A DNA stretch of 36,667 bases from positions 1 to 36,667 of the forward strand of contig WBUQ01000030.1 of NCBI GenBank assembly GCA_008933635.1, read 5' to 3'. Below are positions 20,471 through 28,234 of this stretch, piece after piece. The position numbers were made by a program, and so were the translations under genes. The notes under the pieces were generated by a model that saw nothing but the letters and a program-made list of their open reading frames with translations, had not been told where the DNA came from and did not search any database. Source of the stretch: Desulfobulbaceae bacterium. Lineage in GTDB: Bacteria > Desulfobacterota > Desulfobulbia > Desulfobulbales > Desulfocapsaceae. Position 1 is the first letter of the stretch, and every line of letters starts with the position of its first letter.

Positions 20471-22972
20471 TTACTTGTCTGTACTGCTGTAGAATGACCA
20501 AGTCCCTGTCGTTGTGGAAAAACTATAAAACATGACCAGTGTGAACGGTTTTCCTCTCCCATTTTCAATGCACTGCATTCTGAACAACAGTTTGTCACCA
20601 TCTTTCTTAACAAAAGTGATGACAGGTGATGACAAGCTGTCATGCGAGGAAACTGGATAATTTTGCGCAAAGAGATCCTGGTAATGTTGCTCCAGATAAG
20701 CGATCTTTTCACTGATTTCTTTTTCGTTTTCAACACTTGACAAGGTTTCGCTGGCCTTCTTTCGAAATTCTGCGATTTCCTTTTCCTGCTTCAGCGGGCT
20801 GTTGTCAATGGCCTTGATGATCTGTTGCAGTTGCTTTACCGCTTCGCCGTAATTTTTTTCTGAAATATATTGATCCGCTTCCTGCTGATCCCTGATAATC
20901 GATGCCTGCAACATGATTCTGGAAAGTTTCTGCAGGTTCATGTCCGTATCGACTTTATTGAGCAGTCCTGGATTGTCCATTAGGATCTTGCTGGCATTTG
21001 CATATTTTCTGATGGCTTCATTCCAATCGCTGTTTGCAAAAGCTGTTTTTCCTTCATTGATTGTTGAATATAATCCGGCTCTGGCTGCGTCAGCCTGGAT
21101 TGATGTCAGAGCTGTGCTCTCTTGCTGATCCAGCTTCGTCCCGAGCTGAATGGCCTTTTGAAACAAATCGAATGCTTCAGTCCATTTGGAAGCTGCGAAC
21201 ATCTCTTCGCCTTGTTGTTTAAGGAGAAGAAAGGTGCATTTGTCTATGTTGCTCTGCAGAGAAGATTGATACGTCTTTTGCTCTTCAGGTGGAAAAGATC
21301 TGATTCCGGAAAGAGCTTGCTGAAAATGCTCGCGTGCTTGTTGCCATTTTCCCTTTTCCATCGCTGTATTTCCTTCCTGGATGGAGAGGTTTGCCTGGGC
21401 CCGTTTGATCTTTCTGGAGAGGTCCTCCTGTATGGAGGGATCGATTTTAGGATCCTCCTGAATCGCTTTCATGACGAGATTATATGTTTCGACAGCATTC
21501 TTCCAATCTGCTGACGCTGCTAGCTTGTCTCCCTCTTGGATAAGTTTCTGGGAATTCCTTAATGATTCTGCCACGGATATAGGAATGTATGAGCCATTTA
21601 CAAGGACATTGCCGGCGAGACCCTGCCGCATCTCCTCGGAGTTGATCAAGGCGTCAAGCTTGCCGAGCAGTTCTGTACTTTCCTGCTGTCTGATGAATGT
21701 TACTTCCTTGGCAAGGGTGATTGCAGCTCCACAGGATTGTGATGCCTCCTTGAACTTCGCTGCCCGCATTTGATCGGTGCAATCGTTATACAGTTGTTCA
21801 GCACGCTTATATTGGTTGCTGTTGGCAAAATAAATATATGCAATTGGGGCAATGATAGCAGTAAGGCCAATCAAGATGGCTATAGGTACAATGTTGATTT
21901 GTTTTTTGTGCTTGCCATTGTACATGGTCACCTTGGTTTCGGCCGGTGACGAGGGGGTAGGCTGGGAACGTTCAGTTCTTTTGCCGTTTTTGGTCTGCTG
22001 TTTGCTCTCTTTTTGAGACTGATCGTCTCCCTGGACCCAATCTCCAAGAAGATCCTTGGCCTGCTCTGTACGACGGATGTCCTCCTGAATCTTTGGATAA
22101 TCGCTCACCAACTCTTCGACAGCTCTGTATTTCTCGAGTGCTTTAGCAGGAAGTCCACGATGCTCGAGTTCTTCACCCTCGTTATAGATTGCCCTGGCAT
22201 CTTTGATAGAATTTTTGATCAAGTCAGCGAGTTCACTTTTACCTTCGAAGACTGCATTATCAGAGAGGTTTTTCAGCAGATCTCGTAGATGGAAAAAGCG
22301 CTTTTGTCTTGAGAGCAACCAGATTTTTTCACTGTCGAATTCCGCCGATTCGTTAACCTGAGGACCTGTCTGTGGAACTGATGGAGTCTCTGGTTCTTTT
22401 TCATGATCAATACCAAGAAGATTGAAATCCGAAGTAAAATCATCGTCTTCAAGTGTGTCAATCTCAATAGACTCGGTTAGGTTGTCAGCCTTGGGCGAAA
22501 TGATTGGATTAGCCTCAGGTAGACCTTCGATCTTGGCGAAAGGTAGCTTGTCGGCGTTTTCCCGATACCATAGGGCGGCTTGCTCGTTGAACGTGTTTTC
22601 CTTGGAGTAGAGCTCTCCTGAAATCATTTTCCCTATGAAAAGTATCAGTTCAGAAATGGACCGATCATGTTGCCAGAAATCCCCAAGACATATGGCCGCT
22701 GGATCGAAATCGGGGTGAAAGATAGGGGTTTTTGGCTTACAGCTTGGGGGAAAATGGGGGAATCCGAATGGAATAGTTATTGAGACGATATGATTTGAAG
22801 AGTGTTGTATGCGCCCACTATCATCTTTATATATTCCCTGGATGGCATAGCTTGCCTCGTACTGCTCGGGTGGATTGCCCTTTGTTGGTTTTACCGATAT
22901 ATTCGGATGATTACTAAATACATTTTTTATTTCTTCAGATATTGCAGCTAATTGCTGTGTGTCGGCAACCAT
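20471..22972 (-). CDS. Membrane protein with N-terminal E2/UBC-like domain and helical repeats
   Basis: The ATG at 22972 (833 residues) has AGGAAAGGA upstream and is preferred to the TTG at 23011. Residues 1-145 resemble a ubiquitin-conjugating fold: a first helix, a β-sheet region, then PIFHPDFD (H86-P87-D88), ICLG with C95 at the catalytic position, W100, a helix SISELILFIGKMI, and NEQAALWYREN, like the C-terminal E2 helix. Asp88 replaces the usual Asn of HPN. Residues 150-215 are an acidic linker and 261-295 a TPR-like hairpin. One membrane helix spans about 360-383, preceded by KHKK, suggesting the E2 part is cytoplasmic. Residues 384-760 hold at least five A-x-x-x-x-W/Y-x-x-A repeats (near 484, 536, 591, 643 and 702). 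A small C-terminal β-rich domain ends the protein. No E1, JAB or ubiquitin-like gene is nearby. Function is unknown. Confidence 0.8.
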   Translation of the reverse strand: MVADTQQLAAISEEIKNVFSNHPNISVKPTKGNPPEQYEASYAIQGIYKDDSGRIQHSSNHIVSITIPFGFPHFPPSCKPKTPIFHPDFDPAAICLGDFWQHDRSISELILFIGKMISGELYSKENTFNEQAALWYRENADKLPFAKIEGLPEANPIISPKADNLTESIEIDTLEDDDFTSDFNLLGIDHEKEPETPSVPQTGPQVNESAEFDSEKIWLLSRQKRFFHLRDLLKNLSDNAVFEGKSELADLIKNSIKDARAIYNEGEELEHRGLPAKALEKYRAVEELVSDYPKIQEDIRRTEQAKDLLGDWVQGDDQSQKESKQQTKNGKRTERSQPTPSSPAETKVTMYNGKHKKQINIVPIAILIGLTAIIAPIAYIYFANSNQYKRAEQLYNDCTDQMRAAKFKEASQSCGAAITLAKEVTFIRQQESTELLGKLDALINSEEMRQGLAGNVLVNGSYIPISVAESLRNSQKLIQEGDKLAASADWKNAVETYNLVMKAIQEDPKIDPSIQEDLSRKIKRAQANLSIQEGNTAMEKGKWQQAREHFQQALSGIRSFPPEEQKTYQSSLQSNIDKCTFLLLKQQGEEMFAASKWTEAFDLFQKAIQLGTKLDQQESTALTSIQADAARAGLYSTINEGKTAFANSDWNEAIRKYANASKILMDNPGLLNKVDTDMNLQKLSRIMLQASIIRDQQEADQYISEKNYGEAVKQLQQIIKAIDNSPLKQEKEIAEFRKKASETLSSVENEKEISEKIAYLEQHYQDLFAQNYPVSSHDSLSSPVITFVKKDGDKLLFRMQCIENGRGKPFTLVMFYSFSTTTGTWSFYSSTDK

Positions 22973-23050: not shown

Positions 23051-23143
23051 AAAAAAAGCGTGCCTGAGCAGGGTGATAAATACACCTATGGTATATATGT
23101 GCCGAATCGTAGAAACAGGGTATTATCATTCGGGAGCGGTTGT

Positions 23144-23209
23144 ATGAAAATCCAGGGAACAAATGCGGTCAAGGTCCTTTTTTCCTGCCAGTACATGATG
23201 AAGCAATGA
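23144..23209 (+). CDS. Possible 21-residue leader peptide
   Basis: An ATG at 23144 has GGGAG (23132-23136) seven bases upstream. It opens a 21-codon frame beginning MKIQGTNAVKVLF whose TGA stop (23207-23209) overlaps the ATG of the next gene (23206) as ATGA. The arrangement suggests translational coupling. The alternative is that the large gene starts at TTG 23140, using the same ribosome site at shorter spacing. Too short to judge by sequence alone. Confidence 0.3.
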   Translation: MKIQGTNAVKVLFSCQYMMKQ

Positions 23210-24252
23210 TAGTTTTTGAAATTGTCGAACAGAGCAATTGCCCTCTCTATAAGGTTGGAGAGTGCTTTACGCTGACAGAACGGGCTGTTCGCTGCCCGCC
23301 AAAGAAGGAAGCCTGCTTAATACTTGTGCGAGAGATGACGGAACTTCTGTTTGAGTTCCTGCAGCGGAAATCAACAGATCCATCTGATATTACAGTCAGT
23401 ATTTACACATGCAGTGGATGTTCCGGTTTGATCAAATTCCGCCAGCGGACTCAGATTCCTGACGCCAAGAAGAAATCGGGTTTAATCAGGGGAGAGGTGG
23501 TTGACAAGCGCATGAGGAGCTTGATTGAAAACAGTGAATTTTTCCGTGCACTGCCGAAAGAGAGTGCGGAAATTTTCATTGCTTCCTGTAAGGAATTGGA
23601 TCTTGATCCAAAGGGTGTCCTCATACACAAAGGTGAGTATAATCAAAACTTATATCTTATTCTCGAAGGAATTCTGACGGTTGAAAATGACAATGTAATT
23701 GTCGCCGAATGTGGGAGAGGAGATCTCTGTGGTGAAATGAGCTATCTCGGCACTGGCATTGCGACCTCAACTGTCCGGGCGATGACGAAAGTAAAAGTGC
23801 TGGCGATCAGCGGAGAAGAATTCGATAACCTGTTTGGCGAGAATGCCGCTGTTCAGAGTTATATGGCTAAATTGCTCGCCTCACGCTTGCAAAGGGCAAA
23901 TATTGCGAGGTCTCAGGACTTTGCTTCCACAATGAGCGGGCAACTTGGCGAAATTGGTCCGGCTGAATTATTTCAGATTTTCCACATGCATCAGAAGACA
24001 GGTGTCCTCCTGTTCCAACTCCATAAAGGCGAGGCTCGCGTCTCGTTTCGCGAAGGATGCATTATAAATGCGAGCTATGGAGCGCTTGGCAATCAGGACG
24101 CCATCTTCTCCATCCTGGCGGAGAAAAAAGGCCAGTATCGATTTACAGTCGGCTTGACTCCTCAGGAGATGAAAGCGGCGGAAATCGGTGATTTCATGAT
24201 GCTGCTAATGGAAGGGGTGAAGCGTATCGATGAGGAAATCTCCGATGACTAG
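23206..24252 (+). CDS. Cys-rich, cyclic-nucleotide-binding-like and DUF4388 protein
   Basis: From the ATG at 23206 the protein has 348 residues; a TTG at 23140 would add 22. Residues 1-80 contain six cysteines (C12, C20, C30, C37, C69, C72) in a CPLYKVGEC...CPPKKEAC...CSGC pattern, a possible metal or Fe-S site. Residues 106-225 form a cyclic-nucleotide-binding β-barrel (ENSEFFRALP, YLILEGILTVE, GDLCGEMSYLG). The phosphate-binding segment reads GIATSTVRA and lacks the Arg normally found before Ser/Thr-Ala, so the ligand may not be cAMP. Residues 243-316 are a DUF4388 domain (SGQLGEIGPAELFQIFHMHQKTGVLLF, FREGCIINASYG). No DNA-binding domain is visible. It probably acts in regulation or sensing and is divergent from the E2-like gene. 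Confidence 0.8.
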   Translation: MIVFEIVEQSNCPLYKVGECFTLTERAVRCPPKKEACLILVREMTELLFEFLQRKSTDPSDITVSIYTCSGCSGLIKFRQRTQIPDAKKKSGLIRGEVVDKRMRSLIENSEFFRALPKESAEIFIASCKELDLDPKGVLIHKGEYNQNLYLILEGILTVENDNVIVAECGRGDLCGEMSYLGTGIATSTVRAMTKVKVLAISGEEFDNLFGENAAVQSYMAKLLASRLQRANIARSQDFASTMSGQLGEIGPAELFQIFHMHQKTGVLLFQLHKGEARVSFREGCIINASYGALGNQDAIFSILAEKKGQYRFTVGLTPQEMKAAEIGDFMMLLMEGVKRIDEEISDD

Positions 24253-25666: not shown

Positions 25667-28234
25667 TTAAATTTTCTTTTCCGGGAACAGGGTCAGTATC
25701 GGACTGGCGACGAAGATAGAAGAGTACGTGCCTATAAGTATACCGATGATCAGCACCAGCGAAAAATCATGAATAACCGATCCTCCCAGGAAATAGAGGG
25801 ATAACAGGACCAGTATGGTTGTTGTGCCGGTAACGACTGTACGGCTAAGCACTTCATTGATGCTGAGGTTGATCGTGTCGTAAAGTGGATTGCTCTGATT
25901 CTTGTGGATGTTTTCCCGAATACGATCGAACATAACGACAGAGTCGTTGATAGAATAACCGGCAAGGGTCAACAGAGCGGTTACAATCAACAAGTTCATC
26001 TCGATATTGAGCAGCCAGCAGATACCGATGACGCAAAAGACATCGTGCAATGTGGCAAGCATTCCTGCAAGGCCAAATCTGAGATCAAAACGTACTGCGA
26101 GGTAAAGAACTATTCCACACAATGAGAGAAAGATGGCAAGCAGGGCTTTGTCTCTCAGTGTGGAACTGACCGAAGAGCCTATCTCGGATTGACTCTCCAA
26201 CGTGAAATTTTTATCCGGAAGGTCATTGTTCAGGACACGGGTTATCGTGTCACTGATCCCGGAGAGAACTTCTTCACTTTTCTTGACTTTGACAATCAGG
26301 CGAGATTCATTCTCCACTTCTTGAAGATCGATTCCCTCGAGATTGTTATTGGCAAAAACCTCGCGCACCTCAGCAAGTTGAAAAGGCTTGGCTGCCTGGT
26401 AGTTGAGCAGGGAGCCGCCGGCAAAATCAACACCGAGATTTGCGTGGCCTAACACGATCTGGATCATCGCAAAGACACCGATCAGCGCAGTTGCGCCTGA
26501 AATTCCAAACGAGATATTCTTGATCCGCAGATAGTCGAATTTCGGCTTTTCTATGAAATTTAGATAGCGAATTTTTTTAATCGGGCGAAAACGATTGATA
26601 ACCTCAAACATCATCTGGGAACAGGTAAGTGCTGTGTAAAGGTTAAAAAGAATACCGAGCGAGAGAGTGATAGCAAAGCCCTTGATCGGACCTGTTCCGA
26701 ACATGAACAGGACAACTGCTGTGATCAGGGTGGTGACTTGTGAGTCTAGAATTGAATAAAAGGCCTTGTCAAAGCCACCATCAATACTCGATCGTATGGA
26801 TTTCCCTATTGCCAGTTCTTCTCGTATTCGCTCGAAAATGAGCACGTTCGAGTCAACCGCCATCCCGATCGAGAGGACGATGCCGGCAATACCTGGCAGG
26901 GTGAGGGTGGCATTGAGGATGGCAAGACCAGAAAAGAGAAACAAGATGTTAAGGAAGAGCGCGCCATTAGCGATCAATCCAGACGTTCGGTAATAGATCA
27001 GCATAAAACCGACGACCAGGATGGTGCCGAAGACGCCGGAAACGAGACCCTTATTGATTGAATCCTGACCGAGACTTGCGCCAACGGTCATGTTTTGGAT
27101 GATGTTGACCGGAGCGGGCAAAGCGCCGACCCGGAGGACGATGGCCAGATCAGATGCCTCCTCATGGGTGAAACTGCCTGAAATCTGGGCAGATCCGCCG
27201 AGTATTTTCTCACGAATGACCGGGGCGGAACGGACATTTTCGTCAAGGACAATGGCCATTCGCCGTCCGACGTTCTTTTCGGTGATCTGGCCGAAAAGCT
27301 TCCCGCCTCTGCCGGTCAGATCCAGACTGACATACGGTTCATTGAAACTGCCGCCAATCCGGACCTGTGCGTCCTTGACCATGTCGCCGGTCATCAGCAC
27401 CTTGTTTTCCAGGAGGATAGGGGTGACGATCTCCCGCTTGGTTTGTGGCTCGATATTTTTCTCGAAGTATATCGATGTGTCTTCAGGCAACTTGTTCTGC
27501 AAGGCTCGACTCAGTTTCTTCCGGTCTTCTCCTTCCTTCCATTGTCCGGTCTGTTTGACCTGCTCGATGAGTTCTGGAAGATTGATCCCGGCGGGTTCGG
27601 CAACCAGCTTGAATTCGAGCTGAGCCGTGTCGCCAAGCAACTTTATCGCACGCTTTGGATCTCTGACGCCGGGGAGCTGGATAACTATTTCGTCGTCTCC
27701 CTGACGTATGATAACTGGCTCTGCGACACCGAACTGGTCTATCCTGTTGCGGATTATTTCCAGAGATTGTTCAACCGAATGGGTTTTGATGTACTCTCTT
27801 TTTTCGTCACTTAGGGAGAGAAAAATTTTGGGAAAATTTTCTGCTGAACTTTCGACTTTGATGCTGATATCAGGGAAATCATCCTTGATCAGGTTTGTCA
27901 CTTCTTCAACGCTTCCCGTATTGGGAAGGGTGAAGATGACAGTATCGGGAGTTGGGGATGGGGTGCGGATCGCACTGATCGACTGTTCAGAGAGAGTATC
28001 CTTGAGATCATTGGCGGCGAGTTCGAGAGAGTTCTCCTCGGCTTTCTGCAGATCCACTTTCAGAACCAGGTGCATGCCTCCCTGAAGGTCAAGACCCAAT
28101 CGCAGACCTTCAGGTGCCATGTATTTTTTCCACCAATCCGGAGTGGAGGAGTAAAACGACGGCACAACTGTAATTACGGCGAGGGCAAAGAGGAAAAGAA
28201 GCAGGCCCAGTTTGAGTTTGAGTGATGTGTTCAT
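25667..28234 (-). CDS. secDF: Protein translocase subunit SecDF (fused SecD and SecF)
   Basis: SecDF uses the proton gradient to pull exported proteins out of the Sec channel. The 855-residue product joins both subunits. Residues 1-545 are SecD: a first membrane helix (8-27), GLRLGLDLQGGMHLVL, the periplasmic P1 domain, and a five-helix RND block containing GIVLSIGMAVDSNVLIFERIREE. Residues about 570-855 are SecF: GVDFAGGS and ALLTLAGYSINDSVVMFDRIREN, followed by helices. Both conserved RND membrane motifs with Asp are present. E. coli encodes two proteins of 615 and 323 residues, so this is a genuine fusion as in Bacillus. No yajC precedes it. A TTGCAA-16-TATAAT promoter lies upstream. Confidence 0.97.
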   Translation of the reverse strand: MNTSLKLKLGLLLFLFALAVITVVPSFYSSTPDWWKKYMAPEGLRLGLDLQGGMHLVLKVDLQKAEENSLELAANDLKDTLSEQSISAIRTPSPTPDTVIFTLPNTGSVEEVTNLIKDDFPDISIKVESSAENFPKIFLSLSDEKREYIKTHSVEQSLEIIRNRIDQFGVAEPVIIRQGDDEIVIQLPGVRDPKRAIKLLGDTAQLEFKLVAEPAGINLPELIEQVKQTGQWKEGEDRKKLSRALQNKLPEDTSIYFEKNIEPQTKREIVTPILLENKVLMTGDMVKDAQVRIGGSFNEPYVSLDLTGRGGKLFGQITEKNVGRRMAIVLDENVRSAPVIREKILGGSAQISGSFTHEEASDLAIVLRVGALPAPVNIIQNMTVGASLGQDSINKGLVSGVFGTILVVGFMLIYYRTSGLIANGALFLNILFLFSGLAILNATLTLPGIAGIVLSIGMAVDSNVLIFERIREELAIGKSIRSSIDGGFDKAFYSILDSQVTTLITAVVLFMFGTGPIKGFAITLSLGILFNLYTALTCSQMMFEVINRFRPIKKIRYLNFIEKPKFDYLRIKNISFGISGATALIGVFAMIQIVLGHANLGVDFAGGSLLNYQAAKPFQLAEVREVFANNNLEGIDLQEVENESRLIVKVKKSEEVLSGISDTITRVLNNDLPDKNFTLESQSEIGSSVSSTLRDKALLAIFLSLCGIVLYLAVRFDLRFGLAGMLATLHDVFCVIGICWLLNIEMNLLIVTALLTLAGYSINDSVVMFDRIRENIHKNQSNPLYDTINLSINEVLSRTVVTGTTTILVLLSLYFLGGSVIHDFSLVLIIGILIGTYSSIFVASPILTLFPEKKI

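What the first reader, a model, noticed from the sequence alone, without database searches (positions are those of the whole stretch)
20471..22972. Membrane-anchored E2 (ubiquitin-conjugating)-like domain joined to helical repeats
Residues 75-140 keep the E2 core order: P-x-T-P-I-F-H-P-D, nine residues later ICLG with a candidate catalytic Cys (C95), W100, an amphipathic helix, then NEQAALWYREN, as in the last E2 helices. The HPN Asn is Asp (D88), and the Cys-Trp spacing is shorter than usual (5, not about 8). Known bacterial E2-like proteins usually stand beside E1 (ThiF), JAB or ubiquitin-like genes. Here the domain is tied instead to one membrane helix and a long repeat region, with no such genes in the window. 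This may be an undescribed bacterial E2-like architecture, perhaps a scaffold or conjugation enzyme on the cytoplasmic side of the inner membrane.
Basis: partly seen in the sequence, partly recalled or inferred. Interest (0 to 1): 0.88.

Follow-up and report, generated by a model that had tools for sequence, protein, structure and literature searches.

The report
Membrane-tethered, probably non-catalytic E2-fold protein
A family of inner-membrane scaffold proteins found widely in one order of sulfur bacteria carries a genuine ubiquitin-conjugating (E2) fold whose active-site cysteine is often replaced, so it most likely works as a docking module rather than as a conjugating enzyme.

Summary
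The minus-strand gene 22972..20471 encodes 833 aa: an E2 (UBC)-fold domain (1-150), linkers and a helical segment, one membrane helix (about 357-385), a TPR-like array and a small beta domain. The E2 fold is supported by sequence (UQ_con E 8.4e-5, just under the curated cut-off; all 16 relatives tested hit it) and by structure (AlphaFold pLDDT 91.7; best VIA-align Z 14.1, human UBE2S). The domain occurs in 170 of 257 genomes of the order. A phylum sample gave two matches outside the order; one, 31% identical without gaps, sits in an E1-JAB-RING-E2 gene cluster. HPN is HPD in 118 of 129. The window's genome shows no dedicated E1, JAB or Prok-RING_1: its ThiF hits look MoeB/ThiF- and TcdA-like, its weak JAB hits are RadC. 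The most persistent neighbour is a divergent cNMP-binding/DUF4388 gene. Best reading: a UEV-like docking domain, derived from a bacterial conjugation E2, on an inner-membrane scaffold. Its ligand is unknown.

The parts
20471..22972 (-). E2-like / TM / TPR protein gene, 833 aa
   Evidence: ORF and translation; whole protein matched in 178 of 257 genomes of the order
22523..22972 (-). N-terminal E2 (UBC)-fold domain, residues 1-150
   Evidence: UQ_con, PDB sequence search, AF2 model and fold search
22709..22711 (-). Asp88 codon, the Asn position of HPN
   Evidence: Asp in 118 of 129 distinct domains, Asn in 3
22688..22690 (-). Cys95 codon, aligned with the E2 catalytic Cys
   Evidence: alignment to UBE2C; Cys in 82 of 129
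22037..22339 (-). helical segment, about residues 212-312, between two low-confidence linkers (151-210, 312-360); cytoplasmic by inference
   Evidence: full-length AF2 model
21818..21904 (-). membrane helix, about residues 357-385
   Evidence: hydropathy maximum 2.39, only segment over 1.6
20660..21766 (-). TPR-like helical array, about residues 403-771; periplasmic by inference from the charge rule
   Evidence: Pfam TPR hits; AF2 model; flank charges
20489..20641 (-). C-terminal small beta domain, about residues 778-828
   Evidence: AF2 secondary structure
23206..24252 (+). divergent neighbour: N-terminal Cys-containing segment, cNMP-binding domain, DUF4388 (longest ORF starts at 23140; ATG at 23206 by reading the translation)
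   Evidence: Pfam PF00027 and PF14332; divergent partner at 75 of 98 distinct E2-domain rows

Best explanation
It is an inner-membrane scaffold whose cytoplasmic N-terminus is an E2-fold docking domain, used in the manner of UEV/RWD domains rather than as a conjugating enzyme. Shown by computation: E2 fold, one membrane segment, repeat arrays, wide conservation in the order, repeated change at the catalytic Cys with the rest of the core kept, and close sequence kinship to an E2 encoded in a bacterial E1-JAB-RING gene cluster. Inferred: the E2 domain came from such a conjugation system, was fused to a pre-existing TPR-membrane helix-TPR scaffold (E2-less homologues exist), lost its catalytic role, and now recruits a cytoplasmic partner to the membrane, passing signal or cargo to the periplasmic array. 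The leading partner candidate is the divergently encoded cNMP-binding/DUF4388 protein; this step is weak (about 0.3).
For: Fold. Position 95 is Cys in 82 of 129 distinct domains, while W100, P72, P76 and P87 are each kept in 128, H86 and N129 in 127; among 104 rows without the two outgroup loci C95 ranks 55th of 151 columns. At least 7 Cys/non-Cys changes on the tree. HPN is HPD in 118 of 129. First helix mostly acidic (mean net charge -1.8); that E1 binding uses basic residues there is recalled. Window genome: two ThiF proteins over cut-off, most like MoeB/ThiF and TcdA models but below those models' cut-offs; two sub-cut-off Prok-JAB hits, both RadC; no Prok-RING_1 over cut-off. E2-less TPR-TM-TPR homologues in three other families. 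Best match outside the order lies in an E1-JAB-RING cluster. Divergent DUF4388 gene at 75 of 98 distinct rows, including loci where most other neighbours differ.
Against: The window protein itself has the Cys, and so do 71 of 80 named relatives, more than a drifting unused Cys would suggest; C78 is present in all 75 distinct rows of the order that have Cys95. The relative in the E1-JAB-RING cluster shares the short loop and has both HPN and Cys, so it may be active. The count of changes cannot tell loss from gain. No partner has been shown: the divergent neighbour is missing from 23 of 98 distinct rows, and its own family is so common (242 of 257 genomes, paralogues included) that joint presence says little.
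Confidence: 0.62

Rival explanations
1. Active membrane-tethered E2: in the Cys-bearing lineages C95 still carries a Ub-like protein received from a non-dedicated E1 (for example the MoeB/ThiF-like protein), and the Arg/Lys-bearing lineages are secondary losses.
For: Cys kept in 71 of 80 named relatives and aligned to the E2 Cys; 31% identical, gap-free relative in an E1-JAB-RING cluster; Cys rows and full-length cNMP/DUF4388 neighbours go together, 60 of 69 against 3 of 29.
Against: No dedicated E1, JAB or Prok-RING_1 found in the window genome, 96% complete; HPN Asn replaced; Arg and Ser inside the window's genus; the link between Cys and full-length neighbour is not significant once kinship is allowed for (median p 0.5).
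Confidence: 0.13
2. C95 is a redox, metal or structural thiol rather than an E2 catalytic residue; the E2 fold is a plain protein-interaction domain and the Cys/Arg switch reflects a changed ligand.
For: C78 present in all 75 distinct Cys95 rows of the order; Arg in most family f6 rows, with short DUF4388 partners; the hosts are anaerobes (recalled).
Against: C78 is kept in 9 rows that lack C95, one of them the outgroup locus L062, and L063 has C95 without C78, so there is no strict pair; the distance between the two thiols was not measured.
Confidence: 0.15
3. Protein-quality-control adaptor: the E2-like domain presents substrates to AAA+ unfoldases and proteases at the membrane.
For: ClpB, an FtsH-like AAA protease, or ClpA (with ClpS in L241 and L245) within about 3 kb of the E2-like gene in 12 of 118 loci, two of them contigs fetched twice, in three different settings; the L063 cluster also has AAA, DnaJ-like and S8 genes.
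Against: No such neighbour beside the window gene or in the common kpsF/secDF setting; the class was chosen after the fact and no chance rate was computed.
Confidence: 0.1

Closest known systems
Canonical UBC/E2 enzymes (Pfam UQ_con PF00179; UBE2C, UBE2S)
   Same: fold, motif order P..P....HP(N/D)......ICxx, C-terminal helices
   Different: HPD for HPN, Cys not required across the family, three residues shorter between Cys and Trp, acidic first helix, joined to a membrane helix and TPR array, no cognate E1 found
UEV and RWD domains; the inactive E2/RWD-like proteins of bacterial polyUbl operons (type 6e of Iyer et al. 2006, PMC1779556, passages seen)
   Same: E2 fold without a required catalytic Cys; proposed binding role
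   Different: those bacterial ones lie in operons with Ub-like, JAB and E1 genes; this one stands apart from such genes, is membrane-anchored, and part of the family still has Cys
   Same: E2 domain 31% identical over 143 residues, no gaps, same short Cys loop
   Different: L063 E2 has HPN and Cys and a possible zinc-ribbon tail (sub-cut-off hit), and sits with E1, JAB, FHA and RING genes; the window gene has none
Bil (BilB) and CBASS E2 proteins
   Same: bacterial E2-like
   Different: window protein matches no PADLOC model at E 0.01
E2-less TPR-TM-TPR homologues in the same order (families f8, f9, f10; a 524-aa ORF in G095; a paralogue in G221)
   Same: membrane helix, TPR array and C-terminal region; in f8-f10 also an N-terminal helical part
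   Different: no E2 domain

Membership tests
Canonical E2 (UBC, PF00179) | E2 fold | tested here: met
   pLDDT 91.7, pTM 0.88; VIA Z 14.1 to UBE2S, 128 aligned, rmsd 2.4
Canonical E2 (UBC, PF00179) | profile score over curated cut-off (27 bits) | tested here: not met
   22.6 bits whole protein, 26.4 for residues 1-151; relatives L062 30.4 and L063 29.2 pass, L074 25.5 does not
Canonical E2 (UBC, PF00179) | HPN motif | tested here: not met
   HPD in the window; Asp 118, Asn 3 of 129
Canonical E2 (UBC, PF00179) | conserved catalytic Cys | tested here: not met
   present in the window protein, but Cys in only 82 of 129 distinct domains of the family
Canonical E2 (UBC, PF00179) | thioester with a Ub-like protein delivered by an E1 | not testable with these tools
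   biochemistry; the ThiF proteins over cut-off in the window genome are MoeB/ThiF- and TcdA-like
UEV / RWD (inactive E2 fold) | E2 fold | tested here: met
UEV / RWD (inactive E2 fold) | no catalytic Cys | tested here: inconclusive
   window protein has Cys95; 47 of 129 family domains do not
UEV / RWD (inactive E2 fold) | non-covalent binding of Ub or another ligand | not testable with these tools
   no ligand known
Bacterial Ub-like conjugation gene clusters (Iyer types, Bil, CBASS, L063 type) | E2-like gene beside E1, JAB and/or Ub-like gene | tested here: not met
   window ORFs read; E1, JAB and RING sought genome-wide; Ub-like genes not searched
Bacterial Ub-like conjugation gene clusters (Iyer types, Bil, CBASS, L063 type) | sequence kinship of the E2 domain to an E2 of such a cluster | tested here: met
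   L063 E2, pairwise E 8e-28, 31% identity
PADLOC Bil / CBASS E2 models | model match | tested here: not met
   0 families at E 0.01

The most novel reading that the evidence does not exclude
An order-wide E2 branch left a bacterial E1-JAB-RING conjugation system, was bolted to a trans-inner-membrane TPR scaffold, and in its Cys-bearing lineages still forms a thioester without a dedicated E1, working with a cyclic-nucleotide-binding/DUF4388 partner.
Probability: 0.08. Interest if true: 0.9.

Novelty: new variant of a known kind. Interest (0 to 1): 0.6.

Why it matters
A 2024 survey reported only single instances of human-E2 catalytic-domain homologues in bacteria, in four phyla that do not include Desulfobacterota (PMC11354881, section 3.6, read). 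Here an E2-fold family, just below the Pfam cut-off, is present in 170 of 257 genomes of one order, with the active-site residues replaced to different degrees and a relative still inside an E1-JAB-RING gene cluster. That offers a bacterial test case for how an E2 becomes a UEV-like binding module, and a membrane-tethered E2-fold architecture that I did not find in the papers and passages I could see.

Tried and rejected
Viral contigs: 12 pattern matches, none encoding a relative. Plasmids and phages (tblastn): no match at E 0.01. The BFVD fold search returned mostly viral E2 enzymes, which only restates the fold. The full-length model searched against PDB gave TPR proteins with poor superposition (rmsd about 17-52), so no specific scaffold is named. 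NCBIfam matched the TPR part to a type IV pilus outer-membrane family (Amuc_1098, E 4.4e-8) at 31.6 bits against a cut-off of 750; not followed.

Link between Cys95 and a full-length divergent partner: 60 of 69 against 3 of 29 (6 rows with short flanks and the two outgroup loci set aside), Fisher p 4.6e-13, but with kinship allowed for only 4 pairs on well-supported branches and median p 0.5; not claimed. Presence of the partner family is uninformative, since it matches in 242 of 257 genomes.

Neighbours of E2-less homologues (cytochrome c, ferredoxin and NrfD-like genes, my reading) and of the short E2 paralogues (RecD2; ClpS-ClpA) gave no single common function.

Literature. PMC1779556: passages only. 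PMC11354881: passages (where 'desulfo' occurs 0 times) and section 3.6. Other papers: search listings only. Searches with bacterial-E2, Desulfo-, RING, RWD/UEV or FHA terms showed nothing on this family in the rows listed (lists of 33 and 89 were cut); a DUF4388/PATAN search showed 20 unrelated rows of 5,526. The 2011 prokaryotic RING paper and the 2008 E2-fold paper of Burroughs and colleagues, recalled, are not held, so an earlier mention there cannot be excluded.

Limits. Family codes f1, f6, f13 are unnamed; organism names come only from the titles, several of which are vague (Proteobacteria bacterium) and one of which, L139, says Desulfoarculaceae. The 80 named loci are the best-scoring 80 of 144 and lean to near kin. 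The tree rests on 147 columns for 106 rows, quick method, many open forks, two long outgroup branches joined. In one search repeated domain sequences and rows with a gap at position 95 were dropped (202 rows to 129); the 129 include the outgroup loci L062 and L063. The 104 proteins and the 118 loci hold some genomes twice. No test was made for Ub-like genes.

Full report
WHAT IS THERE. The minus-strand ORF 22972..20471 encodes 833 aa. Residues 1-150 match UQ_con (E 8.4e-5, 22.6 bits, cut-off 27); residues 1-151 alone score 26.4 bits, and all 16 members of an orthologue alignment hit UQ_con, while three other families are each hit by one member. It is the only UQ_con match of its genome; of 14 control genomes 2 ring and 0 pass the cut-off. 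phmmer against PDB finds UBE2C (E 3.7e-4), with C95 aligned to the cysteine of the ICL motif; the 16-row profile improves this to 1.9e-5. The AlphaFold model of the domain has pLDDT 91.7 and pTM 0.88; all 50 Foldseek rows shown are entries that hold an E2 (best E 4.1e-7), and VIA-align gives Z 14.1 to UBE2S (128 aligned, rmsd 2.4). The E2 fold is established as far as computation can.

ARCHITECTURE. The full-length model (pLDDT 80.9, pTM 0.45, so domain placement is not reliable) shows low-confidence stretches 151-210 and 312-360, a helical segment 212-312, a long helix over the membrane segment, a TPR-like array to about 771 and a small beta domain at the end. Hydropathy gives one membrane segment at 357-385. 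Of 104 family proteins of 500 aa or more, 76 have exactly one such segment, and the N-terminal side is the more positive in 85 of 104, which suggests that the E2 domain is cytoplasmic and the array periplasmic.

DISTRIBUTION. The whole protein matches in 178 of 257 genomes of the order, the E2 domain in 170 of 257, 101 of 148 of the better genomes (asked for the class, which returned 257 genomes with the same handles). In 395 genomes drawn from the phylum there were 12 matches, ten in the order and two outside, G281 and G585. The 80 named loci include Desulfobulbus, Desulfocapsa, Desulfopila, Desulfofustis, Desulforhopalus and Desulfurivibrio, many of them metagenome bins. The window carries dsrAB-like genes (my reading).

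THE CYSTEINE TEST. Among 16 first orthologues, two from the window's own genus have Arg (L002) and Ser (L012). In 80 named loci: Cys 71, Arg 6, Ser 2, Tyr 1. In 129 distinct domains: Cys 82, Arg 31, Lys 3, Pro 3, Ser 3, Ala 2, and one each of Tyr, His, Asp, Gly, Thr. Against that, W100 is kept in 128, H86 in 127, N129 in 127, Y38 in 126. On a tree built without the trait column, Cys/non-Cys changes at least 7 times; the count cannot tell loss from gain. C95 ranks 55th of 151 columns in conservation over 104 rows. The Asn of HPN is Asp in 118 of 129. So catalysis through this Cys cannot be the family's shared function. Told against my reading: the window protein and most of its named relatives keep the Cys, and C78 is present in all 75 distinct rows of the order that have it; a role of the thiol in those lineages is not excluded.

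WHERE IT CAME FROM. The G585 relative (L063, 361 aa) has HPN and Cys, scores 29.2 bits for UQ_con, and aligns to the window domain over 143 residues without a gap at 31% identity, so the short loop after the Cys is shared. Around it, on the same strand, lie ThiF-type E1 (E 1.3e-54), JAB (E 7.1e-13), AAA and S8 peptidase genes, and FHA, Prok-RING_1 and DnaJ-like genes; a Ub-like gene was not looked for. The G281 relative (L062, 1054 aa) has HPN but Asp for Cys and carries an E2 domain, TPR-like hits and a hydrophobic segment near residue 650; only its E2 domain aligns strongly with the window protein, the repeats weakly. The window's genome (96% complete) has two ThiF proteins over cut-off, most similar to MoeB/ThiF and to TcdA models though below those models' cut-offs, and two weak JAB hits that are RadC; no Prok-RING_1 over cut-off. 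Homologues without the E2 domain but with the same membrane helix and TPR plan occur in families f8-f10, in G095 (a 524-aa ORF), and beside the E2 form in G221. I infer, and have not shown, that the E2 domain was fused to an existing scaffold and then released from catalysis.

NEIGHBOURS. The most persistent neighbour is the divergent gene 23140..24252 (cNMP_binding E 7.8e-15, DUF4388 E 7.4e-19). It is divergently adjacent to 75 of 98 distinct E2-domain rows with enough flank (63 long, 12 short without a detected cNMP domain; 23 none), including loci where most other neighbours differ. Long partners go with Cys (60 of 69 against 3 of 29), but the test that allows for kinship is not significant. 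ClpB, an FtsH-like AAA protease or ClpA lie within about 3 kb of the gene in 12 of 118 loci, two of these being contigs fetched twice; none is beside the window gene.

VERDICT. Observation confirmed; 'E2-like, membrane-anchored scaffold' is right, 'conjugation enzyme' is not supported. I call it a new variant of the E2-fold kind that probably works like a UEV/RWD docking module. I do not file it as a canonical E2, since HPN, the conserved Cys and the curated score were tested and not met and no cognate E1 or JAB was found; nor as a proven UEV, since the window protein still has the Cys and no ligand is known.

Noticed in passing
L063:1907-15842 (G585:C35): Same-strand bacterial ubiquitin-like gene cluster with E1 (ThiF), JAB, FHA membrane protein, Prok-RING_1, E2, DnaJ/zinc-ribbon protein, AAA ATPase, S8 peptidase, trypsin-like protease and Ser/Thr kinase; a Ub-like gene was not looked for.
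   Followed up: partly
L071:1856-4321 and L080:2745-5210: 822-aa protein with a Clp-type AAA_2 domain followed by an FtsH-type AAA and M41 peptidase (Pfam on the L071 copy); an unusual double-AAA protease.
   Followed up: partly
L241:4071-8615; also L245 and L244: A short (533-553 aa) E2-TM-TPR paralogue with Pro in place of Cys95 lies just beyond clpA (with clpS in L241 and L245) in one genus.
   Followed up: partly
L062:5257-8439: 1054-aa protein in another family: E2 domain with HPN but Asp for the Cys, then repeats and a membrane segment; possibly a parallel E2-scaffold fusion.
   Followed up: partly
window 25667-28234: SecD- and SecF-like parts look joined in one 855-aa ORF (read from the translation, not searched).
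   Followed up: no
L093 (G044:C102:2682-3076): E2 domain copy with two stops inside and split over two frames, a likely pseudogene.
   Followed up: no
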